From NCBI GenBank assembly GCA_900318535.1, contig ONKU01000001.1:124001-188000 (forward strand): 64,000 bases of DNA. Reading direction: 5' to 3'. The notes beneath the pieces were generated by a model. It did no database searches and was not told the DNA's origin. It was given only the letters and a program-made list of their open reading frames with translations. This document shows, one piece after another, positions 2,215-48,868 of this stretch; position 1 is the first letter of the stretch, and each line of letters begins with the position of its first letter. The stretch comes from an uncultured Prevotellaceae bacterium (lineage in GTDB: Bacteria > Bacteroidota > Bacteroidia > Bacteroidales > Muribaculaceae). A program made the translations under genes and the position numbers.

Positions 2215-3630
2215 ATGTATAATGTCAAGTCTAATCACGCCGATGAGTTCATCGACGATAGCGAGATACTAGACACCCTAGCATACGCTGAAAAGAACAA
2301 GAGTAATCGTGCTCTGATTGAGGAGATTATCGATAAAGCCGCACTGTACAAGGGTCTTACCCACCGCGAGGCTGCCGTGCTGCTCGACTGCGACCAGCCC
2401 GACCTGATTGAACGCTACGAGCAGCTGGCCAAGGACGTGAAACGTCGTTTCTACGGCAACCGCATCGTGATGTTTGCCCCGCTGTATCTGTCCAACTACT
2501 GCATCAACGGTTGCGTCTATTGCCCCTACCATGCCAAGAACAAGACCATTCCGCGCAAGAAACTCTCGCAGGACGAAATCCGTGCCGAGGTAGAGGCGCT
2601 GGTCAAGATGGGTCACAAGCGCATTGCCCTCGAGGCTGGCGAGCACCCCGTTATGAACCCCCTCGAATACATCCTGGAGTCGATCCACACCATCTATAAC
2701 ACCAAGGTGGGCAACGGCGAAATCCGTCGCCTGAACGTGAACATCGCCGCTACCGAGGTCGAGGCCTACGAGAAACTGAAGGCCGCCGGCATCGGTACCT
2801 ATATCCTGTTCCAGGAGACCTATAACCGCAAGAACTACGAGGCCCTGCATCCCACGGGCCCCAAGAGCAACTACAGCTACCACACTGAGGCCATGGACCG
2901 TGCCCAGATGGGCGGTTGTGACGATGTGGGCATCGGCGTGCTGTACGGCCTGACCACCTACCGTTATGACTTCGTGGGTCTGCTGATGCATGCTGAGCAC
3001 CTGGAGGCCAAGTTCGGCGTAGGTCCGCACACCATCAGCGTGCCGCGCATCTGCCCCGCCGAGGACATTTCCCTCGACGAGTTCCCCGACGTACTGCCCG
3101 ACGACATCTTCTGCCGCATCATCGCCGTCATCCGTCTGGCCGTGCCCTATACTGGCATGATCATCTCCACCCGCGAGAGCCAGAGTGTGCGCGCTAAGGT
3201 GCTTGACCTGGGTGTGTCACAGATCAGCGGCGGCAGCCGCACCAGCGTGGGCGGTTACACCACTGTAGAGCGCCACGACGAGACGGCCCAGTTCGACGTG
3301 AGCGACACACGCACTCTCGACGAGGTCATCAACTGGCTGCTGTCCATCGGCTATCTGCCCAGCTTCTGCACCGCCTGCTACCGTTCGGGCCGCACGGGCG
3401 ACCGCTTCATGGCCCTGTGCAAAGCCGGCAAGATTGGCGACATCTGCACGCCCAATGCCCTGATGACGCTCAAGGAGTACCTCATGGACTTTGCCAGTGA
3501 AGACACCGTGGCCAAGGGCAATGCTCTGATTGAGCGGGAATTGGCCAAGATGACCAATGAGCGCGTGCGCGACATCGCCGCCCAGCACATCAAGGACATC
3601 GCTGGCGGCCAACGCGACTTCTACTTCTAA
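2215..3630 (+). CDS. hydG: [FeFe] hydrogenase H-cluster radical SAM maturase HydG
   Basis: At 471 residues the length is normal for HydG, the radical SAM tyrosine lyase that makes the CO and cyanide ligands of the H-cluster. The radical SAM motif is CINGCVYC (near residue 98), preceded by MFAPLYLSNY. The biotin-synthase-like barrel continues through LEAGEHP, NVNIAATEVEAYEKLKAAGI and FQETYNRKNYEALHPTGPKS. The C-terminal auxiliary cluster region is present with CTACYRSGRTGDRFM (near 390-405), the part that sets HydG apart from ThiH. hydF follows on the same strand after 89 bases that hold a 16-bp inverted repeat. Its targets, two [FeFe] hydrogenases, lie at 7739-12274 on the other strand. Confidence 0.96.
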   Translation: MYNVKSNHADEFIDDSEILDTLAYAEKNKSNRALIEEIIDKAALYKGLTHREAAVLLDCDQPDLIERYEQLAKDVKRRFYGNRIVMFAPLYLSNYCINGCVYCPYHAKNKTIPRKKLSQDEIRAEVEALVKMGHKRIALEAGEHPVMNPLEYILESIHTIYNTKVGNGEIRRLNVNIAATEVEAYEKLKAAGIGTYILFQETYNRKNYEALHPTGPKSNYSYHTEAMDRAQMGGCDDVGIGVLYGLTTYRYDFVGLLMHAEHLEAKFGVGPHTISVPRICPAEDISLDEFPDVLPDDIFCRIIAVIRLAVPYTGMIISTRESQSVRAKVLDLGVSQISGGSRTSVGGYTTVERHDETAQFDVSDTRTLDEVINWLLSIGYLPSFCTACYRSGRTGDRFMALCKAGKIGDICTPNALMTLKEYLMDFASEDTVAKGNALIERELAKMTNERVRDIAAQHIKDIAGGQRDFYF

Positions 3631-3719: not shown

Positions 3720-4925
3720 GTGAATATTTTTAATAGGGCTCCACAGAGTGAGAGGGTGCACATTGCGCTATTCGGACGGCGCAATGTGGGCAAGTCGTCG
3801 CTTATCAATGCCCTCACGGGCCAGCAGATTGCCATCGTGAGCGACGTGGCCGGCACCACGACCGACCCGGTGTGCAAGTCGATGGAAATCCTGCCGCTGG
3901 GACCGTGTGTGCTCATTGATACAGCGGGTTTTGACGACACGGGCAAGGTGGGCGACCTGCGCACCGAACGTACCCGCGAAGTCATCAAGCAGGCCGACAT
4001 CGCCATCGTTGTGACCGACGGCGCCACGCTCGACGACGAGGCGGCATGGGCCGGGCTACTCAAGCAGGCCAACGTCCCCTACGTTGCCGCGCTGAACAAG
4101 GTGGACCTGATGACTGAAATTCCCTCTACCCTACTCGCCGACATTGCCAAACGGCTGGGCTGCGACGCCATCCCCGTCAGCGCCATGAACGGAACGGGTC
4201 TCGATCTGCTGCGTAAAACCCTGGCCGGCTTGATGCCCGAAAGCGGCAATCAGTCACTCACGGGCAATCTGGCTCAAACGGGCGACACGGTGCTGCTGGT
4301 CATGCCGCAGGACCCGCAGGCCCCCAAGGGACGCCTCATCCTGCCGCAGGTACAGACCCTGCGCGACCTAATGGACAAAAGGTGTATCGCCATCTGCTGC
4401 ACGACCGAGGATATCGACCGCACTTTGGCAGCCCTCAAGGAACCGCCCCGACTCATCATCACCGACTCACAGGTATTTGACATCGTGGCGCAGAAAAAAC
4501 CAGCCGAAAGCCTGCTCACGTCCTTCTCGGTGCTGATGGCGGCCCATAAGGGTGACATCCATTATTTCGTCGAGAGCGCTCCCGCCATCGACCGCCTGAC
4601 GGAGCAATCGCGCGTGCTCATCGCCGAGGCCTGCACCCATGCCCCGCTGGCCGAGGACATCGGGCGCGAAAAAATTCCCCGCATGCTGCGACAGCGCGTG
4701 GGACAAGGACTGAAAATCGATATCGTTGCGGGCAAGGATTTCCCCAAGGATTTGACGGGCTATGACCTGGTCATCCACTGTGGCGGCTGCATGTTCAACC
4801 GCCGTTTCATGCTCCAGCGCGCGGAGCAATGCCGTGCCCAGGGCGTGCCGATGACCAACTACGGCATCACCATCGCCCACGTCAAGGGGATTTTGGGCAA
4901 AGTTACACTACCTCAGCCCATCTAA
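3720..4925 (+). CDS. hydF: [FeFe] hydrogenase H-cluster maturation GTPase HydF
   Basis: HydF is the scaffold GTPase that carries the [2Fe] subcluster precursor to apo-HydA. The 401-residue protein starts at GTG 3720. It has a Walker A motif GRRNVGKSS (near residue 20), switch elements GTTTDPV and DTAGFDD, and the NKVD base-recognition motif (near 124), all TrmE/Era-like. The central dimerisation domain and the C-terminal iron-sulfur domain follow, ending in HCGGCMFNRR and NYGITIAHVKGIL, conserved in HydF. It sits just after hydG. No third maturase gene (hydE) is next to it or elsewhere in the window. Confidence 0.95.
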   Translation: MNIFNRAPQSERVHIALFGRRNVGKSSLINALTGQQIAIVSDVAGTTTDPVCKSMEILPLGPCVLIDTAGFDDTGKVGDLRTERTREVIKQADIAIVVTDGATLDDEAAWAGLLKQANVPYVAALNKVDLMTEIPSTLLADIAKRLGCDAIPVSAMNGTGLDLLRKTLAGLMPESGNQSLTGNLAQTGDTVLLVMPQDPQAPKGRLILPQVQTLRDLMDKRCIAICCTTEDIDRTLAALKEPPRLIITDSQVFDIVAQKKPAESLLTSFSVLMAAHKGDIHYFVESAPAIDRLTEQSRVLIAEACTHAPLAEDIGREKIPRMLRQRVGQGLKIDIVAGKDFPKDLTGYDLVIHCGGCMFNRRFMLQRAEQCRAQGVPMTNYGITIAHVKGILGKVTLPQPI

Positions 4926-4985: not shown

Positions 4986-5912
4986 CTACTTGTTCATGAG
5001 GATTTCAAACAACTGACGGTGTTTTTTTCCAATAACCTCAAGAATAAGACCTGCAAAGAAGAAAAGGACGCTTACAATAATTAAGAATCCGCTGACTATG
5101 AGTGTAGGAAACCTTGGTACCAGTCCTGTCTGTATGTAGTCATAGAGCACCGGAATGACCATCACAAGCCCTACACCAAAGAAGAATAGGGCAAAAAACA
5201 AGAAGAACGTAAAGGGCCTGTAATCACGGAATAAACGAGTTATAGTCAAAAGGACCTTGAATCCATCTTTGTATGTATTCAGCTTTGACACACTACCATC
5301 AGGCCTGTCTCGATATTGCACTGGAATCTCTGCAAGTAAGAAATTCTTATCAAGAGCGTGTATAGTCATTTCCGTCTCTATTTCAAAGCCTTTGGAAAGA
5401 ACCGGGAAATGCTTGACAAAAGATTTGCTGAAAGCTCTGTATCCCGTCATGATATCCTTTACATCACTTTTGAAAATCGAATTAATGAGTTTCCTTACCA
5501 AGACATTACCAAAGTTATGGAATGGTCGCTTATTCTCTTGAAAATACGTACCAGAGAGACGGTCACCTATAACCATATCACAACCATCATTCAATACTTT
5601 ATCGCACATTTTGCGGGCAAACTCAGCAGGATATGTATCATCCCCATCTATCATGATGTAGCAGTCGGCATCAATCTCTCTGAACATGGAACGAATAACA
5701 TTTCCTTTACCTTGACGGTATTCATAGCGCACCTCAGCACCAGCCTCTCTGGCTATGACATCCGTTCCATCGGTTGAATTGTTGTCATAGACATAAATTG
5801 TAGCTTCAGGCAAAGCCTCTTTATAGTCAGCAACTACTTTAGCAATTGTTTTGCTCTCATTGTAACAAGGTATCAATACCGCAATTCTTTTGTCTTTTTT
5901 TTCCATATGCAT
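4986..5912 (-). CDS. GT2-family polyprenyl-phosphate-type glycosyltransferase
   Basis: Of 308 residues, the first 210 or so are a GT-A glycosyltransferase: AVLIPCYNESKTIAKVV at the N-terminus, YDNNSTDGTD, and the metal-binding IDGDDTYP. The last 80 contain two hydrophobic helices (about 222-245 and 260-285), as in DPM1/GtrB-like enzymes that load a sugar onto a lipid carrier. The start is MHMEKK (5912) or MEKK (5906); both overlap the end of the upstream membrane-protein gene by about 50 bases, so the two are likely translationally coupled. Base composition is clearly more AT-rich than the hydrogenase genes on either side, which suggests transfer. Substrate unknown. Confidence 0.85.
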   Translation of the reverse strand: MHMEKKDKRIAVLIPCYNESKTIAKVVADYKEALPEATIYVYDNNSTDGTDVIAREAGAEVRYEYRQGKGNVIRSMFREIDADCYIMIDGDDTYPAEFARKMCDKVLNDGCDMVIGDRLSGTYFQENKRPFHNFGNVLVRKLINSIFKSDVKDIMTGYRAFSKSFVKHFPVLSKGFEIETEMTIHALDKNFLLAEIPVQYRDRPDGSVSKLNTYKDGFKVLLTITRLFRDYRPFTFFLFFALFFFGVGLVMVIPVLYDYIQTGLVPRFPTLIVSGFLIIVSVLFFFAGLILEVIGKKHRQLFEILMNK

Positions 5913-7686
5913 GTGTTGAATAGAACATAATTAATGCCGCATTCACAACGAGCGGAAAGGAATATCTATATGTTGATACCGGGCTTATAAAAAATAAGCC
6001 CAAGGTTAAAAACATCGTGGCGAAAATTACCAATCCCGTGAGATCGCGACGATAGATGAATACTACAAAAAAGAATAAATATAGCCACGTATAGTAAGCC
6101 TTCGAGAAGATAAATTCCAACAATGGAGCACTTGACAGTCTGTTCATAATACGATTGGTTAAAGAACTAAAAGAAGCTCTACAATAAAAATCATATTCAG
6201 GAAGGAGATAAGGGCAAAGCTTCCAATCATCGATATAAAAAACACCTTCTGTATTGTAAAAGAAACCATTCACAAGGTTAATACTAGCCAAGACACATGT
6301 ACCTGGTAGTCTAAGAAAAGTAGTTAACCAAGATTTCATATAAGCAGATAATGCTTCTTTCTCCTCAATACTTGAATAATTGTTTTTTTCAGACCACTTA
6401 ATAACTGGCCTAAAACGATATCGTGACTTAACAGGGTCGGTCACAGTATCTTTATAAATTCGGTTGAGGGTATCGGGATCAATATTAACAATTGCCGTAA
6501 AAGCATGTTTCTCCTCAACAGTGAGTTTTTCAGGATGAGTGATCATACAAAGAGCCGATTGCTGTAAAAATACTCCAATCATTTCATGCTTACTAGCTTG
6601 TGCGACACCTATAGAAGGATAAAGTATCCGGACAACAAAGAAATATACAACAATACCTGGCAGATATGCGTATGTTATTCTCTTTGCCAAAGAACGGTAA
6701 AACAAAACAAGCAATAAATATTGAACCAATACAAAATATATCCCTTGATGACGCGAAAAACAAATCAAGATCACTGCTATTCCATGCATCAAAAGTAATC
6801 TTTTTTTTGGCATCTCCCCTTTTCTACTTCGCCACAACAAATCGGCCAATGTAACAACGAAAAATAGTGAAGAATAAGCAAATATTCCATCCTTAGTATC
6901 ATATATGTTAAGCAGTGAAAAGAATGGAAAAACTGCAAACAATAATACAAGCCATTTCTGTAAACACGAACCTGCACCTACCCTACCACAAAATCTGATT
7001 ACATAGACAAAAAGTGCAGACACAAGTAATATAAAGAGAAATGACATCAATGCTAATCCTATGGATGGATCACCAAGACATTTTCCTAAGTCAAAGAATA
7101 CTTTCTGCAGACAGGCTACAAGGAAAGGATGATGGTCATATAGCACTCTTCCATTTCCAAAACTGCTCAACGACACTGCAGCATCATAATCAAACAAACA
7201 AGGATAAAACACCACCAAATAAGGGATGCGACAGATGACAAAAAAAACGAACAGTTTGATATTGCTTATGCCTAACTTTTTCTCTCCTTCACTCGATTTA
7301 TTGTCAAGATGCCAAATCACATTGGAGAATGCACATAATATTATCTTATAAAACACATAGCTATAAATTGCCATTTTCAGAACAGCAATAGCTAAAAGAG
7401 CATTAGACCCAAAACACAAATCAAGAGAATGGGTGATATTTATACTGTAGCCTAAAGTACAGCAAGCAGCAAAAAAGAATGCCAGAATAATCGATAACCA
7501 CCTCATCAACCGATCAGAATCTTTAGTCCATTTATTCATCAATGTAAATACAATAGGTATTAGCAATGAATAAACACAAAACTTAATGTCGAAATATCCT
7601 GTCAAAGACCTAAAAAGAAGCCATACAACAAGAAAAAGAAAACCCGTAATAAGACCAGTATAACTAACTTTAATATGATTAATCAT
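5857..7686 (-). CDS. Multi-pass membrane protein, DUF6020/GT-C-like
   Basis: This 609-residue protein has about ten or more hydrophobic helices. A conserved-looking loop after an early helix reads YPCLFDYDAAVSL, followed by YDHHPFL; an aromatic-Pro...acidic-Asp loop of this kind occurs in DUF6020 and other GT-C-like membrane glycosyltransferases (family resemblance from memory). A likely role is using the lipid-linked sugar made by the downstream GT2 enzyme for a surface glycan or lipid. The gene is AT-rich and begins 52 bases after the stop of the second hydrogenase gene, with no convincing promoter of its own, so read-through is possible. Function is inferred only. Confidence 0.7.
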   Translation of the reverse strand: MINHIKVSYTGLITGFLFLVVWLLFRSLTGYFDIKFCVYSLLIPIVFTLMNKWTKDSDRLMRWLSIILAFFFAACCTLGYSINITHSLDLCFGSNALLAIAVLKMAIYSYVFYKIILCAFSNVIWHLDNKSSEGEKKLGISNIKLFVFFVICRIPYLVVFYPCLFDYDAAVSLSSFGNGRVLYDHHPFLVACLQKVFFDLGKCLGDPSIGLALMSFLFILLVSALFVYVIRFCGRVGAGSCLQKWLVLLFAVFPFFSLLNIYDTKDGIFAYSSLFFVVTLADLLWRSRKGEMPKKRLLLMHGIAVILICFSRHQGIYFVLVQYLLLVLFYRSLAKRITYAYLPGIVVYFFVVRILYPSIGVAQASKHEMIGVFLQQSALCMITHPEKLTVEEKHAFTAIVNIDPDTLNRIYKDTVTDPVKSRYRFRPVIKWSEKNNYSSIEEKEALSAYMKSWLTTFLRLPGTCVLASINLVNGFFYNTEGVFYIDDWKLCPYLLPEYDFYCRASFSSLTNRIMNRLSSAPLLEFIFSKAYYTWLYLFFFVVFIYRRDLTGLVIFATMFLTLGLFFISPVSTYRYSFPLVVNAALIMFYSTHAYGKKRQKNCGIDTLLQ

Positions 7687-7738: not shown

Positions 7739-9547
7739 TTAAAGGATGGATTTGTCGCGGTACTTGGTGTGGAGGATTTCGTGGGCCTTGCCTTGTAAGG
7801 GTTTGCCCAGGAACTCCCGGTAGAGACGCAGGATGACGGGATTCTCGTGGCTCTTGCGCAGTTTCTTGCCGACGTCCTCACTGTAGATGGCCCGCTGGCG
7901 TGCCTTGATGACCTCGATGTCGCCGTGGTGGTAGGGCTGGCCCGTGCCGCCGATGCAGCCACCGGGACACGCCATCACCTCGATGACATGATAGTCCAGC
8001 TCACCGGCACGCAGTTTGTCCATGACGATGCGGGCGTTGGCCAACGTATTGACCACGCACACCTTCAGTTCAAAGCCGTCGAGGTCGATGACGGCCTCAT
8101 GGATACCGTCTAGACCGCGCACCTGCTCAAACTCGACATGTGCCAGTTCCTTTCCTGTGAATTCCTCATACACCGTGCGCAAAGCAGCCTCCATGACGCC
8201 ACCCGTCGTGCCGAAGATGGCACCGGCGCCGCTGGAGTCGCCCAACGGCATATCGAACTCGCCGTCCTGAAGGCCGTCAAAGTCGATGTTCATGCGCTTG
8301 ATCAGTTCGGCCAGCTCGATAGTGGTAATCGAGTAGTCCACGTCGGGGTTGCCGGCGGTGATGAACTCGTCGCGGGCACATTCATATTTCTTGGACAGGC
8401 ACGGCATCACCGAAACCACCACCAGTTTGTCGCGGGGAATGCCCATGCGCTCGGCCCAATAGCTCTTGAGCACGGCGCCCAGCATCTGGGCGGGTGACTT
8501 GCAGGTCGAGGGATACTCGCGCAGGTCGGGATAATCGTTCTCGAAGAAGTTGACCCATGCCGGGCAGCACGAGGTGGTGATGGGAATGCGCACTGTCTTG
8601 TCGCCGGCGATGAACTTGCGCAGTCGGTCCACAATCTCGGCCGCCTCTTCCATGATGGTGATGTCGGCACCGAAGTCGGTATCGAACACATAGTCTACAC
8701 CTACCTTGCGCAGGGCCGTGATCATCTTGCCAGTGACAATGGTGCCCGGAGGCATACCGAACTCCTCGCCTAGCGCATAACGCACTGCGGGAGCCGTCTG
8801 GGCCACGACAATCTTATCGGGATCAGCCACATCGACCAGCAGGTCCTCGACGTAGTTGCGCTCGCTCAGGGCGCCCACAGGTCCGTGGATGGCGTCGAAC
8901 TTGCACTTGGTCGTGCAGTGGCCGCAGCAGGTACATTTATAGGGATTGACCACATGGGGATGACGCAGGTCGCCCACAATGGCCTGGCTGGAGCAGCCAC
9001 GCTTGCAGGCGCCGCAGCCCTTGCACTTGTCGGCATCGATCTTGTAAGACATCACCGACAGGAACTTCTTGCCGCCAATCTCGTAGATGTAGTCATGCAA
9101 CATGGCGTCCATCGACAGCTGCTTGGGATAGGAACTCCAGTGCTTGGAGTCGTCCATCAGCTGATGGGCAGTGAAATCGACATACTGCAGACGCTCCTCG
9201 AGCAGACGGCCATCGATGATGTGTGTCTTGACGATATCCTCAACATCCTCGGGGTGCACCTGCACGTAGGTCGTATTGTCGGGCATAATCCTGACGATGG
9301 GACCCTTGGCACAGAAGCCGAAGCAACCCGTTGCCACGACGTCAACACGGCTACCCAGACCGTAGTCGGCAATGACGCGAATGAAATTGTCAATGATTTT
9401 CAGGCTGCCCGATTCATAGCAGGATGAGCCGCAGCAGCACAGCACCTGAACGTGGGTGTTAGCGATCAAACCATAAGCCTTTTCGGCATAGTTCGACTGC
9501 ACTTCTCCATTCGAATTGTTTAGTGACTTATCTTGTTGAGATTCCAT
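7739..9547 (-). CDS. Second [FeFe] hydrogenase, mosaic of HydB ends and HydA core
   Basis: The 602-residue protein starts at ATG 9547 (a TTG two codons upstream is less likely). Domain order: a thioredoxin-like [2Fe-2S] domain (about 30-125; CCCGSSC and TGCFGFC); a two-[4Fe-4S] ferredoxin domain (about 170-222; CKGCGACKRGC and CTCCGHCTTKC); then the H-cluster domain with all three signatures, TSCCPAW (325-331), MPCLSKKYE (381-389) and EVMACPGGCIGG (from 523), and the small-subunit tail KLRKSHENP. All H-cluster cysteines and the proton-transfer cysteine are present, so it should be catalytic if matured. The N-terminal and ferredoxin parts resemble the ends of HydB (12289-14196) rather than HydA, and no NADH/FMN domain is present. 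It has its own promoter, 434 bases after hydC. Electron partner unknown. Confidence 0.9.
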   Translation of the reverse strand: MESQQDKSLNNSNGEVQSNYAEKAYGLIANTHVQVLCCCGSSCYESGSLKIIDNFIRVIADYGLGSRVDVVATGCFGFCAKGPIVRIMPDNTTYVQVHPEDVEDIVKTHIIDGRLLEERLQYVDFTAHQLMDDSKHWSSYPKQLSMDAMLHDYIYEIGGKKFLSVMSYKIDADKCKGCGACKRGCSSQAIVGDLRHPHVVNPYKCTCCGHCTTKCKFDAIHGPVGALSERNYVEDLLVDVADPDKIVVAQTAPAVRYALGEEFGMPPGTIVTGKMITALRKVGVDYVFDTDFGADITIMEEAAEIVDRLRKFIAGDKTVRIPITTSCCPAWVNFFENDYPDLREYPSTCKSPAQMLGAVLKSYWAERMGIPRDKLVVVSVMPCLSKKYECARDEFITAGNPDVDYSITTIELAELIKRMNIDFDGLQDGEFDMPLGDSSGAGAIFGTTGGVMEAALRTVYEEFTGKELAHVEFEQVRGLDGIHEAVIDLDGFELKVCVVNTLANARIVMDKLRAGELDYHVIEVMACPGGCIGGTGQPYHHGDIEVIKARQRAIYSEDVGKKLRKSHENPVILRLYREFLGKPLQGKAHEILHTKYRDKSIL

Positions 9548-9613: not shown

Positions 9614-9644
9614 CAAAATTACGAATTTTCTTCCAATCCTGCAA
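9614..9644 (-). promoter_or_regulatory. Bacteroidetes-type promoter of the second hydrogenase
   Basis: Minus-strand TTG (9644-9642), a 20-base spacer, then TAATTTTG (9621-9614). The predicted start near 9607 leaves a leader of about 60 bases before ATG 9547. This makes the second hydrogenase a transcription unit separate from hydBAC. Confidence 0.65.
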
Positions 9645-9861: not shown

Positions 9862-9887
9862 TAGAGACGCAAAATTTTGCGTCTCTA
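9862..9887. repeat. AGACGC palindrome, intergenic full copy
   Basis: A perfect palindrome with core AGACGCAAAATTTTGCGTCT. Near-copies occur inside lptG (34649-34673) and the M64 peptidase gene (53962-53986), and half a copy occurs upstream of the TPR gene (37851-37863). Confidence 0.8.
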
Positions 9888-10504: not shown

Positions 10505-12274
10505 TTAGTGAATGGATTTATCAAAATAGTGCGTGTGAAGCAGGTGATGTGCCTTCTCGCCACAGGGCTCGCCCAGGAAGTCCTTGTAGAGCTTCTGGAT
10601 GTCGGGGTTCTCGTGGCTCTTGCGCAGTGCCTTGCCCTCGTCCTCGCGGTAAACGGCAGCGGCACGTGCCTTGAGAATCTCGATGTTGCCGTGGTGGTAG
10701 GGCTGACCAGCACCGCCGATGCAACCGCCGGGACATGCCATCACCTCAACCACATGGTAGTTGAGCTTGCCGGCACGCAGCAGATCCATGACCTTGCGGG
10801 CATTGCTCAGGGTGTGAGCGATGCAGACCTTCAGCTCAAAGCCGTTGAGGTCGATGGTAGCCTCCCTGATGCCTTCCAGACCGCGCACTTCGTTGAACTC
10901 GAGGTGCGGCAGGGTCTTGCCGGTGTGCACCTCATAGACGGTGCGCAATGCAGCCTCCATCACACCACCGGTGTTGGCGAAGATAGCGCCTGCACCTGTG
11001 GACTCGCCCAGAGGAGAGTCGAAGTCGCCATCGGGCAGGTTGGCGAAGTCGATGTTGGCGCGCTTGATCAGGCGGCCCAGCTCGCGGGTCGAGATGCTGT
11101 AGTCCACATCGGGATTGCCATCCACCTTGAACTCGTCACGACCGCACTCGTACTTCTTGGCCAGACAGGGCATGATCGAAACGACAACGAGTTTCTCGCG
11201 GGGGATACCCATCTTCTCGGCCCAGTAGGTCTTAGCAACAGCGCCAAACATCTGAGCGGGCGACTTGGCAGTCGAGGGATAATCCAGCAGATCGGGATAC
11301 TCGTGCTCGTAGAAGTTCACCCAAGCGGGGCAGCACGAAGTCATCACGGGCAGTTTCACGTCCTTATCGCCAGCAAGGAACTTGTTGAGGCGACCCAGGA
11401 TCTCAGTACCCTCTTCCATGATGGTGAGGTCGGCGGCGAAGTCGGTGTCGAACACGTAGTCGAAGCCGAGGTCACGCAACGAGGTAGCCAGCTTGCCGGT
11501 AACGATGGTGCCGGGCTTCATGCCGAACTCCTCGCCCAGAGCAACGCGCACGGCGGGTGCGGGCTGAGCGATAACCACCTTATCGGGGTTGGTGAGGTCG
11601 TCCATGAGCTGGTTGGTATAATCATGCTCGGTGAGGGCACCGGTGGGACATACGGCGACGCACTGGCCGCAGTAGGTACAGTTGGTGTCCACGAACATCT
11701 TGTCGAAGGTGGGAGCGATGGTGGTGTTGAAACCACGACGGATAGCGCTCAGCACGCCTACGGACTGCACGTTGTTGCAGACGCTCTCGCAACGGCGGCA
11801 GTAAACGCACTTCTCCATGTTGCGGGAGATGGCGGGGGTGAGCTCTTGCTTGCGCTCGCTCTGTTCGCCACCGTTATAGGGCATTTGGCGGATGTTGAAG
11901 CGCATTACCAGGCGCTGGAGTTCGCAGTCGCTGCACTTGGGGCAGGTCAAGCAATCGTTGGGGTGGTCGCTAAGCATGAGCTCGGCAACGGTCTTGCGGG
12001 CGCGAATGACGCGGGCACTGTTGGTGTGAACCACCATACCCGGAGTCACGCGGGTGGCGCAGGCGGGAGCCAGATTGCGACGACCTTCGATCTCAACAAC
12101 ACAAATGCGGCACGAGGCGGGCATGTTCTGTACACAGGTGCCCTCCAGGTCAATGTGGCACAGGGTGGGAATGCTGATGCCAACGGTCTTGGCGGCATCA
12201 AGCAGCATGGTCCCTGCGGGAACAGTTACCTCGTGTTTATCAATCGTCAGAGTGATCATATTCTTTTCTTCCAT
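10505..12274 (-). CDS. hydA: HydA, catalytic subunit of the trimeric [FeFe] hydrogenase
   Basis: The 589-residue protein starts at ATG 12274 (MEEKNMITLTIDKHEV), 14 bases after the hydB stop. Domains: plant-type [2Fe-2S] ferredoxin fold (about 5-80; PASCRICVVEIEG); a His/Cys [4Fe-4S] domain (HPNDCLTCPKCSDC, about 104-117); a two-[4Fe-4S] ferredoxin (CVYCRRCESVC and CTYCGQCVAVC, about 156-210); and the H-cluster domain with TSCCPAW (312-318), MPCLAKKYE and EVMACPGGCIGGAGQP, plus the small-subunit tail. This is the layout of HydA in bifurcating hydrogenases (group A3-like), which oxidise NADH and reduced ferredoxin together to make H2, or run in reverse. An upstream extension of the frame to 12319 would overlap hydB and is not needed. 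Confidence 0.95.
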   Translation of the reverse strand: MEEKNMITLTIDKHEVTVPAGTMLLDAAKTVGISIPTLCHIDLEGTCVQNMPASCRICVVEIEGRRNLAPACATRVTPGMVVHTNSARVIRARKTVAELMLSDHPNDCLTCPKCSDCELQRLVMRFNIRQMPYNGGEQSERKQELTPAISRNMEKCVYCRRCESVCNNVQSVGVLSAIRRGFNTTIAPTFDKMFVDTNCTYCGQCVAVCPTGALTEHDYTNQLMDDLTNPDKVVIAQPAPAVRVALGEEFGMKPGTIVTGKLATSLRDLGFDYVFDTDFAADLTIMEEGTEILGRLNKFLAGDKDVKLPVMTSCCPAWVNFYEHEYPDLLDYPSTAKSPAQMFGAVAKTYWAEKMGIPREKLVVVSIMPCLAKKYECGRDEFKVDGNPDVDYSISTRELGRLIKRANIDFANLPDGDFDSPLGESTGAGAIFANTGGVMEAALRTVYEVHTGKTLPHLEFNEVRGLEGIREATIDLNGFELKVCIAHTLSNARKVMDLLRAGKLNYHVVEVMACPGGCIGGAGQPYHHGNIEILKARAAAVYREDEGKALRKSHENPDIQKLYKDFLGEPCGEKAHHLLHTHYFDKSIH

Positions 12275-12288
12275 GATGCTATCGAATT

Positions 12289-14196
12289 TTAATAAACCGA
12301 GATGGCGTCGAAGCGGCAATTAGACTTACACATACCGCAGCGGATGCACTCGAAGGGGTTAATAATGTGAGGTTTGCGAATGTCGCCCATGATGGCGTTG
12401 GCGGGGCACTTGCGGGCGCAGGCGCCGCAACCCTTACACTTGGAGGCTTCAATGCTGTAGGTCACAAGGGCCTTGCACTGCTTAGCGCGGCAGGTGTGCT
12501 GTTTCACGTGCTCCACATATTCGTCCCAGAAGTTGTTGATAGTCGATAACACGGGATTGGGAGAGGTCTGTCCCAGACCGCACAGGGCGGTGTCCTTGAT
12601 GATCTCGCCCAGCTCTTTCAGGCGGTCGAGGTCTTCCATAGTGCCCTTGCCCTCGGTGATGCGGGTAAGGATCTCGAGCATGCGCTTGTTACCGATGCGG
12701 CAGGGCGTGCACTTACCGCAGCTCTCGTCGCAAGTGAACTCGAGGTAGAACTTGGCCACGCTGACCATACAGTCGTCCTCGTCCATGACGATCATACCGC
12801 CAGAGCCCATCATTGAGCCCGAAGCAGCCAGATGCTCATAGTCGATGGGGGTGTCAAGGTGCTTCTGCGTCAAGCAGCCGCCCGAGGGGCCACCGGTCTG
12901 CACAGCCTTGAACTCCTTACCGTTCTTCACGCCACCACCGATGTCGTAGATGATCTCGCGCAGGGTGGTACCCATGGGAACCTCGATAAGGCCCACATTA
13001 TTAATCTTACCTGCCAGTGCGAACACCTTGGTACCCTTGCTCTTCTCGGTACCGATCGAGGCGAACCAGTCGGCGCCCTTGGTCAGGATGATGGGCACGT
13101 TGGCGAGGGTCTCGACGTTGTTCACGTTGGTGGGCTTCATGTTGTAACCGGCCTCGGCGGGGAAGGGAGGCTTCAGGGTGGGCTCGCCACGCTTGCCTTC
13201 CATCGAGTGGATGAGCGCGGTCTCCTCACCGCAGACGAATGCACCGGCACCGTAGCGGATTTCGATATCAAAGTCGAAATCGGTGCCCAGGATGCTCCTG
13301 CCCAGCAAGCCGTATTCGCGAGCCTGCTGGATAGCGACCTTCAGGCGGTGTACAGCCAGGGGATACTCGGCGCGGATGTAGATCAGACCCTTGTGTGAGT
13401 TGATGCAGTAACCGCAGACGGTCATTGCCTCGATCACCGAGTTGGGGTCACCCTCCATGATGGAGCGGTCCATGAATGCACCGGGGTCGCCCTCGTCGGC
13501 ATTGCAGACCACATACTTCTCATCGGCATCATAGCCACGGGCAAAGCCCCACTTCATGCCGGTGGGGAAGCCGGCGCCACCGCGTCCACGCAGACCTGAG
13601 GCCTTGATGATCTCGATCACCTCCTCGGGGGTCTGGTTGAGCAGTGCGTTAGCAATACCCTGGTAACCGTCACGGGCGATGTACTCCTCTATGTTCTCGG
13701 GGTCGATGAGGCCGCAGTTGCGCAGAGCGATACGCATCTGCTTGCGGTAGAAGTCCATGTGCTTGCTGTCGCTCACGGTCTTGTTGGTCTTGGGGTCAAC
13801 ATAGAGCAGACGCTCTACACGGCGACCGCCGATGATATGCTCCTTGACAATCTCGGCAGCGTCCTCGGGCTTCACCTGGGTGTAGAAGGTGTTGTCAGGC
13901 ATGATCTTGACAATGGGGCCCTTCTCGCAGAAGCCGAAGCAACCGGTAGTGATCACATCCACCTTGTCGGTGATACCGTTCTCTTCAATAGCGGCCTTGA
14001 GGTTATCTACGATTTTGTGGCTGTTGGACGCCTTGCAACCGGTACCGCCGCAGCACAGCACTTGCAGGTGCTCGGCTCCCGTAGCAAGACCACAACACTG
14101 CTCTGACGACTGGTCAGAACTTTCCTCACGCAGTGCCAACAGTTGTTGCGCACGCTTCCTCAAACTGTTGAGGTCGTTAATAGAAAGTATTTTCAC
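12289..14196 (-). CDS. hydB: HydB, NADH/FMN-binding subunit of the hydrogenase (NuoF-like)
   Basis: The 635-residue protein contains: an N-terminal thioredoxin-like [2Fe-2S] domain (about 42-130; CCGGTGC at 48-54, TGCFGFC at 84-90); a NuoF FMN/NADH domain with GLRGRGGAGFPTG (201-213) and NADEGDPGAFMDRS (232-245); an SLBB region (about 390-440); the NuoF [4Fe-4S] domain, CGKCTPC (493-499) with CGLGQTSPNPV; and a C-terminal two-[4Fe-4S] ferredoxin (CKGCGACARKC 587-597, CIRCGMCKSNC 617-627). It is the flavin electron-splitting subunit in this family. It is the first gene of the hydBAC operon. A possible -7 element (TAATTTTG, minus strand 14270-14263) lies upstream, without a clear -33. Confidence 0.95.
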   Translation of the reverse strand: MKILSINDLNSLRKRAQQLLALREESSDQSSEQCCGLATGAEHLQVLCCGGTGCKASNSHKIVDNLKAAIEENGITDKVDVITTGCFGFCEKGPIVKIMPDNTFYTQVKPEDAAEIVKEHIIGGRRVERLLYVDPKTNKTVSDSKHMDFYRKQMRIALRNCGLIDPENIEEYIARDGYQGIANALLNQTPEEVIEIIKASGLRGRGGAGFPTGMKWGFARGYDADEKYVVCNADEGDPGAFMDRSIMEGDPNSVIEAMTVCGYCINSHKGLIYIRAEYPLAVHRLKVAIQQAREYGLLGRSILGTDFDFDIEIRYGAGAFVCGEETALIHSMEGKRGEPTLKPPFPAEAGYNMKPTNVNNVETLANVPIILTKGADWFASIGTEKSKGTKVFALAGKINNVGLIEVPMGTTLREIIYDIGGGVKNGKEFKAVQTGGPSGGCLTQKHLDTPIDYEHLAASGSMMGSGGMIVMDEDDCMVSVAKFYLEFTCDESCGKCTPCRIGNKRMLEILTRITEGKGTMEDLDRLKELGEIIKDTALCGLGQTSPNPVLSTINNFWDEYVEHVKQHTCRAKQCKALVTYSIEASKCKGCGACARKCPANAIMGDIRKPHIINPFECIRCGMCKSNCRFDAISVY

Positions 14197-39645: not shown

Positions 39646-41415
39646 TCAGCTCAGCAGCATGTCAATCAGGCCTGTAACATCGGCAATATTGATCGTGACA
39701 TCATTGTTGATATCAGCACATTCGGTACAAACGCCATCTTCATTTCCCAGCAGATAGTCAATCAGTGCCGTCACATCGGCAATGTTGACGCTGCCGTCGT
39801 GGTTCACATCACCCAAATCAAAGCCGTGAGCGGGAGCGGTGCCGTCACCATTTACCACGCCAAAGGTGATGATGCCATCATTCTCGGCGATATTGGCAAT
39901 GCCAAACTCACAATCCAGGCCACTCCAGGTCTTGAGGCTCGGGGTAGTCAGGTTGTTCAGTGAGCTCACGCCATTGGTTCCCGGGAACGGATCGCTATCG
40001 CTGGATTCAGAGCTGTTACCGGCCCGCAGCAGTTGATAAAGCATGTGATAGGAATATATGTTGATGGTATTTTCCCACCACCGGTCTTCGTCATATTCTA
40101 CTCGAGTAACCAGCATGCCATGACCGGGCAGATATGCATCCCAGCCCGTCTGCTGACGGTTCTCGATCATGAAGAACTCATTCTCGTTGGGAGACTGAAT
40201 CCAGTAGCCCTTATTACTAGTGTTCACAGGCTCCAGCGTGTAGCCAGCACGTTTCTCGGTAATCTGTTCCGGTTCAGCAAAACCCAAACGGTAGCGCTCC
40301 CAAATGGAGAAGCCTGCCGGAGTGCGTGATTCGTTCAGGTAACTGCCACCCGACATCACATCCCATTCTCCGGGATCGTTGGCCGCGCCATTGGTTCCAT
40401 AATCGGTATCATACAGGTCCGCCAGGCCCAACGCATGTGTGAACTCGTGCACGATGGTCCCGATGCCGTCAGGATCAGTATATCCATAGTATTCCCAGCC
40501 GTAAATCTCGCCAGAGCAGGAATAACGGCCCAAATACACCCCGTCATACAGTTCATCAGTATAATAGTACATATAAAACTGATGAGGCCACAAATAGCCG
40601 CTGTTGTTACCTGAGAAATTGGCTGTATAGCCCGCCACGATAAAGTAGATCATGTCCACAAGACCATCGCCGTCGCCATCATACTGGCTGAAGTCAACCG
40701 ACGAATCGAGTTGATCGATGGCCGACACAAAAATATCTCCACAATTATCGTAACCTTGCGGTGTCGTGCTGGAATAATCCACCAGCACGGGGCCTACAAC
40801 GTCAAACTGGGGGTCGAACACACCCATGCTGTTGTCATGGTAATAGTCCCTGGCACTGCCTGTACACGGCACAAAATAGCCTCCTGAACTATAATAGCCC
40901 GTATAGTTCTCCTTATTCATCATGTCATCGAAATAATCGTTGCCATAGGTGAACGAACGGTCAGTGTACTCGATAAGCACCACCAGGCCACGGAAATTCT
41001 GATAGTCGGTCCTTGCAGGAGCCATCAGCTTGTCTCGGTTGGAGCGCATGCGCCTGCCCTGTGCCACTGCGGCTTTGTCAGTCAATCCTTTTTGGAGACT
41101 GGACACCATTTTCATTTCGCTGGCACTGCGCATTTGCGGGTTGTGGGCAATAACACTGCTTGGGACAATCCGCTCTCCCGCTTGAACAGCATACACATAG
41201 TCACCGTTGCTCCTTTGAAGCACAGTGTAACCGTCGGCAGTGGCCGTGTAATGATGGAACTCATCGCCCACCAGCTTCAGCGTCAGGGTGGTACCATCAC
41301 TCTGCTTAACGTCAACAGGCCGTGGATGGGCAGGAATAGCACTAGCAGACATTGCACCGGCAATCATCAGCAATAGCACACACACACTTTTCTTCATCTT
41401 CAGATTCATTTTCAT
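39646..41415 (-). CDS. M6 family metalloprotease with C-terminal dockerin
   Basis: The 589-residue protein has a signal peptide (SVCVLLLMIAGAMSASA; the start may also be ATG 41397). The family prodomain (PAHPRPVDVKQSDGTTLTLK) is followed by the M6 catalytic domain with zinc motif HEFTHALGLADLYD (near 323-336). The C-terminus has a type I dockerin of two repeats, GDVNHDGSVNIADVTALIDY and ADINNDVTINIADVTGLIDM. It is a secreted immune-inhibitor-A-like peptidase. Promoter at 41467-41497. Confidence 0.9.
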   Translation of the reverse strand: MKMNLKMKKSVCVLLLMIAGAMSASAIPAHPRPVDVKQSDGTTLTLKLVGDEFHHYTATADGYTVLQRSNGDYVYAVQAGERIVPSSVIAHNPQMRSASEMKMVSSLQKGLTDKAAVAQGRRMRSNRDKLMAPARTDYQNFRGLVVLIEYTDRSFTYGNDYFDDMMNKENYTGYYSSGGYFVPCTGSARDYYHDNSMGVFDPQFDVVGPVLVDYSSTTPQGYDNCGDIFVSAIDQLDSSVDFSQYDGDGDGLVDMIYFIVAGYTANFSGNNSGYLWPHQFYMYYYTDELYDGVYLGRYSCSGEIYGWEYYGYTDPDGIGTIVHEFTHALGLADLYDTDYGTNGAANDPGEWDVMSGGSYLNESRTPAGFSIWERYRLGFAEPEQITEKRAGYTLEPVNTSNKGYWIQSPNENEFFMIENRQQTGWDAYLPGHGMLVTRVEYDEDRWWENTINIYSYHMLYQLLRAGNSSESSDSDPFPGTNGVSSLNNLTTPSLKTWSGLDCEFGIANIAENDGIITFGVVNGDGTAPAHGFDLGDVNHDGSVNIADVTALIDYLLGNEDGVCTECADINNDVTINIADVTGLIDMLLS

Positions 41416-44684: not shown

Positions 44685-44770
44685 CAGGGCAAGACACATT
44701 ATATTTAAGCATTTTGGCTTGATTTCAGTAAAAACCTGCTGAAATCTGCAAGTTTTTGGTGATAATTCAC

Positions 44771-44778
44771 TATTTTTG
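44771..44778 (+). promoter_or_regulatory. -7 promoter element upstream of the GH53 gene
   Basis: TATTTTTG fits TAnnTTTG, 28 bases before ATG 44807. No TTG at the usual distance. Confidence 0.4.
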
Positions 44779-44806
44779 CAGATTCACAACCGTACTAACT
44801 ATTATC

Positions 44807-46468
44807 ATGACGAAAAGGTTATTACTGATTATCAGCCTGCTGACGTTTACATGCATGGCAGCATGGTGCGGAACCCAATATGCAGGTGGAGACATATCCC
44901 TTCTTCCCAAATATGAGGAAAAAGGTGCCATTTATTATGATGAGAACGGGAAACGCATCACCGATATGCTCAGTTACCTGAAAGCAACAGGGCTGAATGC
45001 TATGCGCGTGCGCTTGTTCGTTGATCCCTCTAAGGCCAATGCCGAGGATCAAGGCGAAGGCGTCTGTCAAGATTTACCCTTTGTTGCCTCATTGGGCCAA
45101 CGCATCAAAGCGGCAGGCTTTAAGTTGCTGCTCGACATTCATTACAGCGACACCTGGACAGATCCAGGACAACACAGTATGCCATCGTCATGGACGGTTC
45201 AGAGCGCCCTGGCCGATAGCGTGTATAGCTATACCGAGCGGGTGCTCTATACCTTGATTGCCGCTGGTGCGACACCTGATTTCATCCAGGTGGGCAACGA
45301 GGTGACCTACGGCATGCTGTGGCCCACCGGCCATTGTTATCCCAACGGCACGAACTACGGCAACGGCACATTTGAGACGTTCGCCAATTACCTCAAGCGC
45401 GGCATTCAAGCTTGCCGTGAAGTGTGCCCCAACGCCAAGATTGTCGTACACACCGAGATGAGCCGCGCATCCAACGTGACATCATTCTACAACACCCTAA
45501 AGGATTATACTACCGACTTTGACATCATTGGGTTGAGTTATTACCCTTACTGGCACGGTGGCATAAGTGTCCTGGACGGCTTGCTGACTACGCTGGAAAA
45601 TTCTTATCCCGACAAAAAGATACAAATTGTAGAGACCGGCTATCCGCATGCCTACTATCCCTCGGGCGCCAACTATGACCTGCAATCGACTTGGCCAGCT
45701 ACCGAAGCCGGGCAGAAGGCCTTTGCATCGGCTCTCGTAGAGACACTGAATGCCCACCGCAATGTAAACGGACTCTATTGGTGGTTCCCTGAGGCCAATG
45801 AATATGGCATCAGCTACGTGAACCATGTGACAACCGACTGGTATAATTGCGGCTGGTGGGATAACCAAAACGGACAGGTGATGGACGCACTGTTTGAGGT
45901 GGCCAAATACGCAGACAGCAGCGAAGATGAGCCTACAGACAGTGCCAGCATCTATATTGTGGGTGGAGAGGGAAACTGGAGCTTGACCGAACCATTATCC
46001 AAAATGACATATTCGGGCAACGGCATATACATGGACACACTGACCATCAGCGCCCCAATCTATTTCGTTTTTGCCGATGGGGGACCTGCATACTGGAACA
46101 ACGATTGGACAGCCTTTAACGCCAATTACCGTTACGGTCCCACAGCCACAACGACCGTCACAACGGGAGCCACCTACTCTACCGCCAAGCGAGACAACAA
46201 CTATTCTTACTATTTCACTGGCGACGGCAGCGATTACCTGTTTACATTCGATGCCGATAATCTCACCTTCACACTGGACCGCGTCGGACTGTTAGGCGAT
46301 GTGAATAACGACAGGCAGGTAAACATCCAGGATGTGACCATCCTCATCGACTATCTGCTGGGCAGCACTATGACGTCATTCGATACAACTAACGCTGACG
46401 TCAATCAGGACAAAACCATCAACATTGCAGATGTAACCTCGCTTATCGACCGCTTGCTGGCAGGTTAA
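44807..46468 (+). CDS. GH53 endo-beta-1,4-galactanase with dockerin tail
   Basis: Start chosen at ATG 44807 (MTKRLLLIISLLTFTCMAAW), which gives a proper signal peptide; 553 residues. The GH53 domain covers about 22-365: YAGGDISLLPKYEEKG, MRVRLFVDPS, LLDIHYSDTWTDPGQ, the acid/base Glu in QVGNEVTYGMLWP (near 165) and the nucleophile in IVETGYPH (near 276). A small beta domain like SusE/F starch-binding modules follows (about 375-490; IYIVGGEGNWS). The C-terminus has a two-repeat dockerin (GDVNNDRQVNIQDVTILIDY, ADVNQDKTINIADVTSLIDR). It should cut galactan side chains of pectin outside the cell. No SusC/D pair is next to it. Confidence 0.92.
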   Translation: MTKRLLLIISLLTFTCMAAWCGTQYAGGDISLLPKYEEKGAIYYDENGKRITDMLSYLKATGLNAMRVRLFVDPSKANAEDQGEGVCQDLPFVASLGQRIKAAGFKLLLDIHYSDTWTDPGQHSMPSSWTVQSALADSVYSYTERVLYTLIAAGATPDFIQVGNEVTYGMLWPTGHCYPNGTNYGNGTFETFANYLKRGIQACREVCPNAKIVVHTEMSRASNVTSFYNTLKDYTTDFDIIGLSYYPYWHGGISVLDGLLTTLENSYPDKKIQIVETGYPHAYYPSGANYDLQSTWPATEAGQKAFASALVETLNAHRNVNGLYWWFPEANEYGISYVNHVTTDWYNCGWWDNQNGQVMDALFEVAKYADSSEDEPTDSASIYIVGGEGNWSLTEPLSKMTYSGNGIYMDTLTISAPIYFVFADGGPAYWNNDWTAFNANYRYGPTATTTVTTGATYSTAKRDNNYSYYFTGDGSDYLFTFDADNLTFTLDRVGLLGDVNNDRQVNIQDVTILIDYLLGSTMTSFDTTNADVNQDKTINIADVTSLIDRLLAG

Positions 46469-48830: not shown

Positions 48831-48868
48831 ACTGTTTTGGACAAGATAAACTAAAAACAAGAGATAAT

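What the first reader, a model, noticed from the sequence alone, without database searches (positions are those of the whole stretch)
7739..9547. A mosaic [FeFe] hydrogenase built from HydB end domains and a HydA core
Seen: the N-terminal [2Fe-2S] domain (QVLCCCGSSC, TGCFGFCAKGPIV, DDSKHWSSYPKQ) runs closely parallel to HydB of the same locus (QVLCCGGTGC, TGCFGFCEKGPIV, SDSKHMDFYRKQ). The ferredoxin part (KCKGCGACKRGC, GDLRHPHVVNPYKC) matches the C-terminal ferredoxin of HydB (KCKGCGACARKC, GDIRKPHIINPFEC), not that of HydA. The H-cluster part matches HydA. So the NuoF flavin/NADH domain appears to have been replaced by an H-cluster domain. Inferred: either an alternative catalytic arm of the complex, taking electrons where HydB would, or a ferredoxin-linked single-chain enzyme or H2 sensor.
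Basis: partly seen in the sequence, partly recalled or inferred. Interest (0 to 1): 0.75.

Follow-up and report, generated by a model that had tools for sequence, protein, structure and literature searches.

The report
Hydrogenase spliced from bifurcating-complex parts
A gut bacterium of the rumen type carries, next to its ordinary two-fuel hydrogen enzyme, a single-chain hydrogenase made by joining that enzyme's ferredoxin-handling ends to its hydrogen-making core without the NADH part, which probably lets the cell make hydrogen from ferredoxin alone.

Summary
Confirmed: window 7739-9547 (minus strand) encodes an intact 602-aa [FeFe]-hydrogenase ("X"). Residues 15-144 match the HydB N-terminus and 160-220 the HydB C-terminal ferredoxin (52% each); the H-cluster core matches HydA (64%). 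Trees put the H-domain inside the genus's own HydA clade and the N-domain beside genus HydB. A fusion scar settles the ferredoxin part, which its tree leaves open: last Fd cysteine to H-domain is 36 residues in 64/64 X rows, 29 in 111/111 HydA rows; the extra seven match HydB's C-terminal tail. Correction: the NADH/FMN domain was not swapped for an H-domain; it is missing, as is HydA's N-terminus, collinear with the hydB-hydA gene order. X is in 55 fetched loci, mostly hydBAC-X-hydFG, under purifying selection, with a promoter motif of its own in 31/31 loci of the window's subclade. In the graded genome samples only one genus had it. Most likely: a non-bifurcating, ferredoxin-driven hydrogenase. 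An alternative arm of HydBC is disfavoured, because X lacks HydA's N-terminal clusters, but not excluded; a sensor is unlikely. New variant of a known kind; function untested.

The parts
7739..9547 (-). gene X: 602-aa mosaic [FeFe]-hydrogenase (stop codon included)
9113..9460 (-). X residues 30-145: thioredoxin-like [2Fe-2S] domain from the HydB N-terminus (cysteines 37/38, 43, 75, 79)
9059..9112 (-). X residues 146-163: linker; aligns to HydB just before its ferredoxin, with HydB's HTC..C stretch lost through a 5-residue gap
   Evidence: that this stretch is the zinc/B2 site of PMC9499530 (passages) is my reading
8882..9058 (-). X residues 164-222: 2[4Fe-4S] ferredoxin domain from the HydB C-terminus (cysteines 175, 178, 181, 185, 205, 208, 211, 215)
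8882..8902 (-). X residues 216-222 (KFDAIHG): seven-residue fusion scar, matching the HydB C-terminal tail, in front of HydA's P-V-G-A-L
7742..8881 (-). X residues 223-602: H-cluster domain plus small-subunit tail from HydA (TSCCPAW, MPC, ACPGGC)
9614..9644 (-). promoter-like TTG-N20-TAATTTTG, 66 bases upstream of the X start codon
9982..10476 (-). hydC (NuoE-like)
10505..12274 (-). hydA (source family of the X H-domain)
12289..14196 (-). hydB (source family of the two X ends)
2215..3630 (+). hydG (H-cluster maturase)
3720..4925 (+). hydF (H-cluster maturation GTPase)

Best explanation
X is a catalytically competent, non-bifurcating [FeFe]-hydrogenase that arose in a lineage of Bacteroidales (record titles say Muribaculaceae, Prevotellaceae or Porphyromonadaceae; several name ruminants) from a copy of its own hydB-hydA pair. 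The HydB N-terminal [2Fe-2S] domain and the HydB C-terminus (2[4Fe-4S]), which in the bifurcating complex is the ferredoxin-binding arm, stand directly before the HydA H-cluster domain; the FMN/NADH module, HydB's HTC..C (zinc/B2) stretch and HydA's N-terminal clusters are missing (architecture, scar and phylogeny shown here; the order of fusion and losses is inferred). Inferred: reduced ferredoxin (from PFOR) donates electrons to the HydB-derived clusters, which pass them to the H-cluster to make H2 without NADH. X thus works like a ferredoxin-only (A1-like) hydrogenase beside confurcating HydABC, and a promoter of its own would let the cell choose between the two.
For: Pairwise matches and absent FMN/NADH and HydA N-terminal domains. 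H-domain: X clade 99* inside the genus HydA clade 99* (SH-aLRT only). N-domain: X 100/100 as one clade, with 10 near HydB against 27 others at 100/97. Mean identity of window X: N 52% to genus-side HydB (48% other HydB), Fd 54% (44% other HydB, 45% to PDB 9rkm, 27% genus-side HydA), H 73% to genus-side HydA (54% other HydA). Scar: 36 residues in 64 of 64 X rows (55 distinct) against 29 in 111 of 111 HydA rows (99 distinct) and 29 in 9rkm; the extra seven match the HydB tail, where FDAI stands in 52 of the 54 genus-side tails printed. 24 of 24 cofactor and proton-path positions in 26 of 26 rows. dN/dS of the N- and H-domains 0.015-0.09 in 13 comparisons (several dS near saturation). Promoter motif within 200 bases in 38 of 56 loci, that is 31 of 31 in the window's subclade and 7 of 25 in the other; 100 shuffles mean 1.2, maximum 6; coding windows 0 of 56. 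hydF and hydG converge on X in 42 of 55 loci. PFOR in 10 of 10 genus genomes, RnfC over cut-off in 0 of 10. Published: in the related NiFe complex ferredoxin binds and is reduced at a HydB [4Fe-4S] cluster (PMC8880783 abstract); the lack of an N-terminal [2Fe-2S] and a C-terminal [4Fe-4S] in S. wolfei HydB is discussed as a reason why it does not use ferredoxin (PMC6288185 passage); a BfuB subtype without B5 and B3B4 is said to lack bifurcation (PMC11406978 legend).
Against: No activity, expression or complex data. The Fd tree alone does not separate X from M2-type and other ferredoxin domains (weak 71/40 split). X rows have long stems in the N-domain tree, and the thioredoxin-like Pfam match is below its cut-off. 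The AF2 model has pLDDT under 50 over residues 140-228, so cluster distances are unknown and the seven extra residues might loosen the Fd-to-H contact. X mostly sits with hydBAC (45 of 54 loci) and HydB is in 43 of 50 X genomes examined, so a role inside that complex is not excluded. The promoter motif was not found in 18 of the 25 loci of the second subclade (one of the 18, L104, is cut there; L007 and L099 look like the same gene). How the N-terminal [2Fe-2S] (B5) takes part is disputed even in HydB (PMC11406978 passage).
Confidence: 0.66

Rival explanations
1. Alternative catalytic arm: X binds HydB and/or HydC in place of HydA, or at the bridge position of HydB's C-terminus, and works only within the complex.
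For: Genetic linkage, 45 of 54 loci with hydC or hydA upstream on the same strand, 36 of 54 within 600 bases of the X frame; HydB in 43 of 50 X genomes examined; X carries the ferredoxin-like domain that takes part in HydB's mobile bridge (PMC9499530 passages).
Against: X lacks the Fer2_4 / NADH-G_4Fe-4S_3 / Fer4_Nqo3 region present in HydA, the part recalled from HydABC structures as wiring the H-cluster to HydB; X lost HydB's HTC..C stretch; separate promoter motif in 38 of 56 loci; no hydBAC within at least 5 kb upstream in 5 of 54 loci.
Confidence: 0.15
2. H2 sensor: X senses H2 and signals through its N-terminal domain.
For: It is an accessory hydrogenase beside the main one; hydrogenase expression in a rumen bacterium responds to H2 (PMC6776011 passages).
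Against: No PAS or output domain listed; [quoted passage not shown] Genes around X other than the hyd genes were not annotated, so a regulator nearby was not tested for.
Confidence: 0.04
3. Uptake direction: X oxidises H2 and reduces ferredoxin.
For: Function and direction cannot be read from sequence alone (PMC8924675).
Against: The genus has PFOR (10 of 10) and no RnfC over cut-off (0 of 10), so it more likely needs an outlet for reduced ferredoxin than a source; inference only.
Confidence: 0.1
4. Ordinary M2/A1-type ferredoxin hydrogenase that only resembles HydB by convergence.
For: PDB search ranks CbA5H-type chains first and DdH-type chains among the best, within residues 167-600; Fd identity to PDB 9rkm is 23 of 51; the Fd tree does not exclude it.
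Against: H-domain nested in genus HydA; seven-residue HydB-tail scar absent from HydA and 9rkm; N-domain groups with HydB.
Confidence: 0.03

Closest known systems
HydABC (group A3, electron-bifurcating [FeFe]-hydrogenase; T. maritima, A. woodii, T. kivui)
   Same: All three X segments derive from HydB and HydA of this type in the same lineage; maturases nearby.
   Different: X has no FMN/NADH module, no HydB HTC..C stretch and no HydA N-terminal clusters, so it should not bifurcate on its own.
Ferredoxin-dependent M2-type / group A1 hydrogenases (DdH, CbA5H core; CpI as larger relative)
   Same: Same functional core: two [4Fe-4S] clusters in front of an H-domain; likely the same reaction with ferredoxin.
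   Different: Different descent of the H-domain; N-terminal thioredoxin-like [2Fe-2S] domain; Fd-to-H spacing 36 instead of 29 (9rkm). The type names are recalled.
Non-bifurcating NADH-dependent HydAB/Hyd1ABC (S. aciditrophicus, S. wolfei)
   Same: Another uncoupled derivative of the HydABC kit.
   Different: The mirror image: S. wolfei HydB lacks an N-terminal [2Fe-2S] and a C-terminal [4Fe-4S] and uses NADH alone (PMC6288185 passage); X keeps these ends and lacks the NADH part.
Nyctotherus ovalis fused hydrogenase and C. perfringens hydrogenase-rubrerythrin chimera
   Same: Natural fusions that change the electron partner of an H-domain.
   Different: N. ovalis fuses equivalents of all three subunits and is proposed NADH-dependent (PMC7311640 passage); the C. 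perfringens enzyme is a rubrerythrin chimera (PMC11926857, search listing only).

Membership tests
[FeFe]-hydrogenase group A (TIGR02512) | score over the curated cut-off and intact H-cluster motifs | tested here: met
   464.9 bits against 405.95; C328, C383, C527, C531 in 26 of 26
NADH-dependent HydA (NF040763, 'group A6' in NCBIfam) | score over the curated cut-off | tested here: not met
   580.4 bits against 765, match starts at model position 143; window HydA scores 878
Group A3 / NADH-dependent HydA | Nqo3-like N-terminal clusters (Fer2_4, NADH-G_4Fe-4S_3, Fer4_Nqo3) | tested here: not met
   present in HydA, not listed for X
Group A3 bifurcating complex | hydB and hydC beside the catalytic gene | tested here: met
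   hydC or hydA upstream on the same strand in 45 of 54 loci
Group A3 bifurcating complex | simultaneous use of NADH and ferredoxin | not testable with these tools
   needs purified enzyme
M2-type ferredoxin hydrogenase (group A1) | 2[4Fe-4S] domain directly before the H-domain with the usual spacing | tested here: not met
   domain present, but spacing 36 against 29 in 9rkm, the one such enzyme compared
M2-type ferredoxin hydrogenase (group A1) | H-domain outside the A3 HydA clade | tested here: not met
   X nested in genus HydA, 99*
M2-type ferredoxin hydrogenase (group A1) | H2 evolution from ferredoxin alone | not testable with these tools
   inferred from domains only
Group B monomeric (TIGR04105) | score over cut-off | tested here: not met
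   163.3 against 450 bits
Group C sensory | PAS or other signalling domain; altered proton-path cysteine | tested here: not met
   no such Pfam domain listed; C327 in 26 of 26

The most novel reading that the evidence does not exclude
X is a second catalytic head that docks on the HydBAC complex through the HydB-derived ends it shares with it, so that low-potential electrons on the ferredoxin arm can be discharged as H2 inside the complex: a two-headed hydrogenase whose coupling can be opened or closed by expressing X.
Probability: 0.1. Interest if true: 0.85.

Novelty: new variant of a known kind. Interest (0 to 1): 0.6.

Why it matters
X is a natural subtraction experiment on an enzyme whose bifurcation mechanism is debated: it keeps the proposed ferredoxin arm (the C-terminal clusters and the N-terminal [2Fe-2S]) and the H-cluster and lacks the flavin. 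If it runs on ferredoxin alone, that shows the HydB ends suffice as a ferredoxin entrance. It also matters for ruminant hydrogen and methane budgets: at least one major survey classed group A enzymes by flanking proteins (PMC6776011 passage), and because X sits in hydBAC clusters it could be counted as bifurcating A3 although it probably is not (I did not run such a classifier).

Tried and rejected
Convergence with M2-type enzymes: rejected on the scar and the H and N trees. Other carriers: the order sample (344 genomes, at most 8 candidates scored in each) and the phylum sample (345 genomes, at most 6) gave a contiguous match only in the window's own genome; 1 of 30 genera in the family sample had any match. 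Other phyla could not be sampled with the X profile (one search returned an error; the single genome-contig scan uses exact 8-residue patterns and keeps the best 80 of 168 relatives), so 'one genus' is a statement about these samples, and the genus of the loci is not told. The hydrogenase N-termini visible (loci L134-L202) were HydA-like, group B-like or short ferredoxin types, apart from window X itself; its output was cut in the middle.

Structure: first AF2 model poor (pLDDT 54.8); alignments A3 and A4 misplaced the HydB segments and were dropped; the second model has mean pLDDT 80.5 but under 50 over residues 140-228. Foldseek put CbA5H, DdH and T. kivui HydA at the top, which says nothing about the ferredoxin part.

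Rows dropped: L146 was labelled X by script (a 675-aa hydrogenase with a Fer2-type start and a match to the HydB N-domain); it adds to the '3 changes' for X and was removed by hand afterwards. L107 (cut by a contig end) counts as H_other and is not in the 54 loci. Rows include repeats of the same gene from overlapping loci. Seven of 50 X genomes had no HydB: in L058, L060, L067 and L105 the record ends inside the hyd operon, L068 and L104 begin near X, and L089 is the only one without that excuse. Five of the 55 X loci (L071, L074, L101, L102, L109) were not given.

Literature: no paper describing this architecture appeared in the listings (88 listed none); subscription papers (for example Meyer 2007, Calusinska 2010, recalled) were not looked up. 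Papers were seen as passages found by terms, except PMC8924675 (part 1 of 5 of its main section) and those marked as listing.

Full report
What is there. The finding's coordinates hold one intact gene on the minus strand, 602 aa, ATG at 9547. It lies 434 bases behind hydC in the order hydB (14196-12289), hydA (12274-10505), hydC (10476-9982), X; beyond two unrelated minus-strand genes, hydF and hydG lie on the plus strand. HydA and X are the only two Fe_hyd_lg_C matches in the genome, which is 92.3% complete.

Mosaic test. BLASTP: X 15-144 to HydB 25-154 and X 160-220 to HydB 572-632, 52% each; X 173-601 to HydA, 64%. With the fetched relatives, the mean identity of window X is: N-domain 52.1% to 43 genus-side HydB rows and 47.7% to 32 other HydB; ferredoxin 54.0% to 54 genus-side HydB, 43.7% to 54 other HydB, 26.6% to 50 genus-side HydA, 33.3% to 61 other HydA, 45% (23 of 51) to PDB 9rkm; H-domain 72.6% to 49 genus-side HydA and 53.5% to 60 other HydA. 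'Genus-side' means loci of the same genus in the genome search plus the X loci, whose genus is not told; rows include repeats of the same gene.

Trees. H-domain, 63 rows after reduction at 88%: X rows of both subclades (with the cut L107) form one clade (99*), which lies inside a clade of 10 rows with the genus's HydA (99*) (quick method, SH-aLRT only; L146 carries a wrong X label there). N-domain, 50 rows: X one clade 100/100 on a long stem; X plus 10 HydB (genus side, G156, G206, L111) stand against 27 other HydB at 100/97. Ferredoxin, 72 rows, 67 columns: X one clade 90/96; a set of 28 rows (X 12, genus-side HydB 8, three near HydB and five poorly placed outgroup rows) stands against 44 others at 99/99; X plus genus-side HydB as one clade is not rejected (p-AU 0.545), but the split from M2-type and other ferredoxins is weak (71/40).

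Fusion scar. The number of residues from the last ferredoxin cysteine to the APA motif of the H-domain is 36 in all 64 X rows (55 distinct sequences) and 29 in all 111 HydA rows (99 distinct) and in 9rkm. The extra seven, KFDAIHG in the window, resemble what follows the last cysteine of HydB (printed tails run eight residues to the end; FDAI in 52 of the 54 genus-side tails printed), after which HydA's own P(V/T)GAL begins. So the HydB C-terminus with most of its tail stands in front of HydA just behind HydA's last ferredoxin cysteine. This is collinear with the gene order hydB-hydA. A readthrough of this kind exists: L061 has hydB and hydA as one 1232-aa frame, as assembled. Two further losses are inferred, the NuoF part of HydB and the N-terminus of HydA. 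HydB's HTC..C stretch is gone through a five-residue gap; that it is the zinc site of T. maritima HydB (PMC9499530, passages) and cluster B2 of the Bfu scheme (PMC9304861, passages) is my reading, not a call.

Distribution. Family sample: matches in 9 of 149 genomes, all in one genus; X in 6 of these 9 (6 of the 10 genus members listed). Order sample, 344 genomes, and phylum sample, 345 genomes: contiguous X match only in the window's genome. The genome-contig scan gave 55 X loci (L057-L110, L114), titled uncultured Bacteroidales, Prevotellaceae, Porphyromonadaceae or Muribaculaceae; titles that name a host say goat, sheep, roe deer, red deer or yak. X falls into two subclades, 80% or more and about 62-67% identical to the window.

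Neighbourhood and selection. Of 54 X loci, 45 have hydC or hydA upstream on the same strand, 36 of them within 600 bases of the X frame; 5 have none in at least 5 kb; 4 have too little upstream sequence. hydF and hydG stand convergent behind X in 42 of 55 loci; 13 show none, of which L083 ends just behind X. dN/dS against window X over 13 loci is 0.015-0.09 for the N- and H-domains and 0-0.04 for the ferredoxin where defined (Nei-Gojobori, several dS near saturation, one undefined). A TTG-N18-22-TAnnTTTG motif, the Bacteroidetes promoter type (recalled), lies within 200 bases upstream of X in 38 of 56 loci, against a mean of 1.2 and a maximum of 6 in 100 shuffles and 0 of 56 coding windows: 31 of 31 in the window's subclade (28 of them 64-66 bases from the start codon, with diverged flanks) and 7 of 25 in the other. 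The loci are related, so these are not independent events.

Mechanism. The cysteines of the [2Fe-2S], two [4Fe-4S] and H-cluster, and the proton-path residues recalled from CpI (C327, E300/E301, E304, S347), are identical in 26 of 26. No flavin or NADH domain is listed. Published work on the related NiFe complex places ferredoxin binding and reduction at a [4Fe-4S] cluster of HydB (PMC8880783 abstract); the absence of HydB end clusters is discussed as the reason why S. wolfei Hyd1ABC does not use ferredoxin (PMC6288185 passage), and as the cause of lost bifurcation in a BfuB subtype (PMC11406978 legend). X is the mirror image: it has the ends and lacks the flavin. The genus has PFOR (10 of 10), no RnfC over cut-off (0 of 10) and HydE wherever it has hydABC (9 of 10; G109 lacks both). 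A ferredoxin-only outlet beside a confurcating enzyme has a precedent in Ruminococcus albus, whose gene cluster with the ferredoxin-only hydrogenase falls 111-fold in co-culture, put down to low H2 (PMC6776011 passages). Hence the reading: X is a ferredoxin-driven, NADH-independent hydrogenase. Electron path, direction and oligomeric state are inferred.

Limits. HydB is found in 43 of 50 X genomes examined, so co-action with HydBC is possible. The AF2 model (mean pLDDT 80.5) leaves residues 140-228 unresolved, so the geometry of the Fd-to-H contact with its seven extra residues is open.

Noticed in passing
L061:1660-5358: hydB and hydA form one 1232-aa open frame (HydB ...CRF joined to GLLKFDSIMEEKN...HydA), as assembled; a natural or assembly-made readthrough close to the point where X was fused.
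   Followed up: partly
L094:5601-7805: hydA and hydC form one 734-aa frame; the H-domain match stops about 25 residues short of its end and a HydC match follows.
   Followed up: partly
window 9864-9885 and 53962-53983: A perfect 22-base palindrome between hydC and X recurs with one mismatch 44 kb away; no match in 100 shuffles.
   Followed up: partly
window 5857-7686; L064:2658: A DUF6020 gene lies between X and hydF in the window, while a relative lies between hydC and X in L064, as if mobile.
   Followed up: no
L057, L061, L062, L081, L088, L095, L105 between hydC and X: Large unassigned ORFs (about 560-1200 aa) stand between hydC and X in these loci, with X intact.
   Followed up: no
G109 (same genus): A genus member with PFOR but without a hydABC or X match and without HydE.
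   Followed up: no
window 39646-41415, 44756-46468, 46530-48830, 48827-51097: Secreted-type proteins end in dockerin-like repeats, seen by eye only.
   Followed up: no
L146:1018-3045: A 675-aa Fer2-type hydrogenase of another family that also matches the HydB N-domain; where in the chain was not looked at.
   Followed up: no
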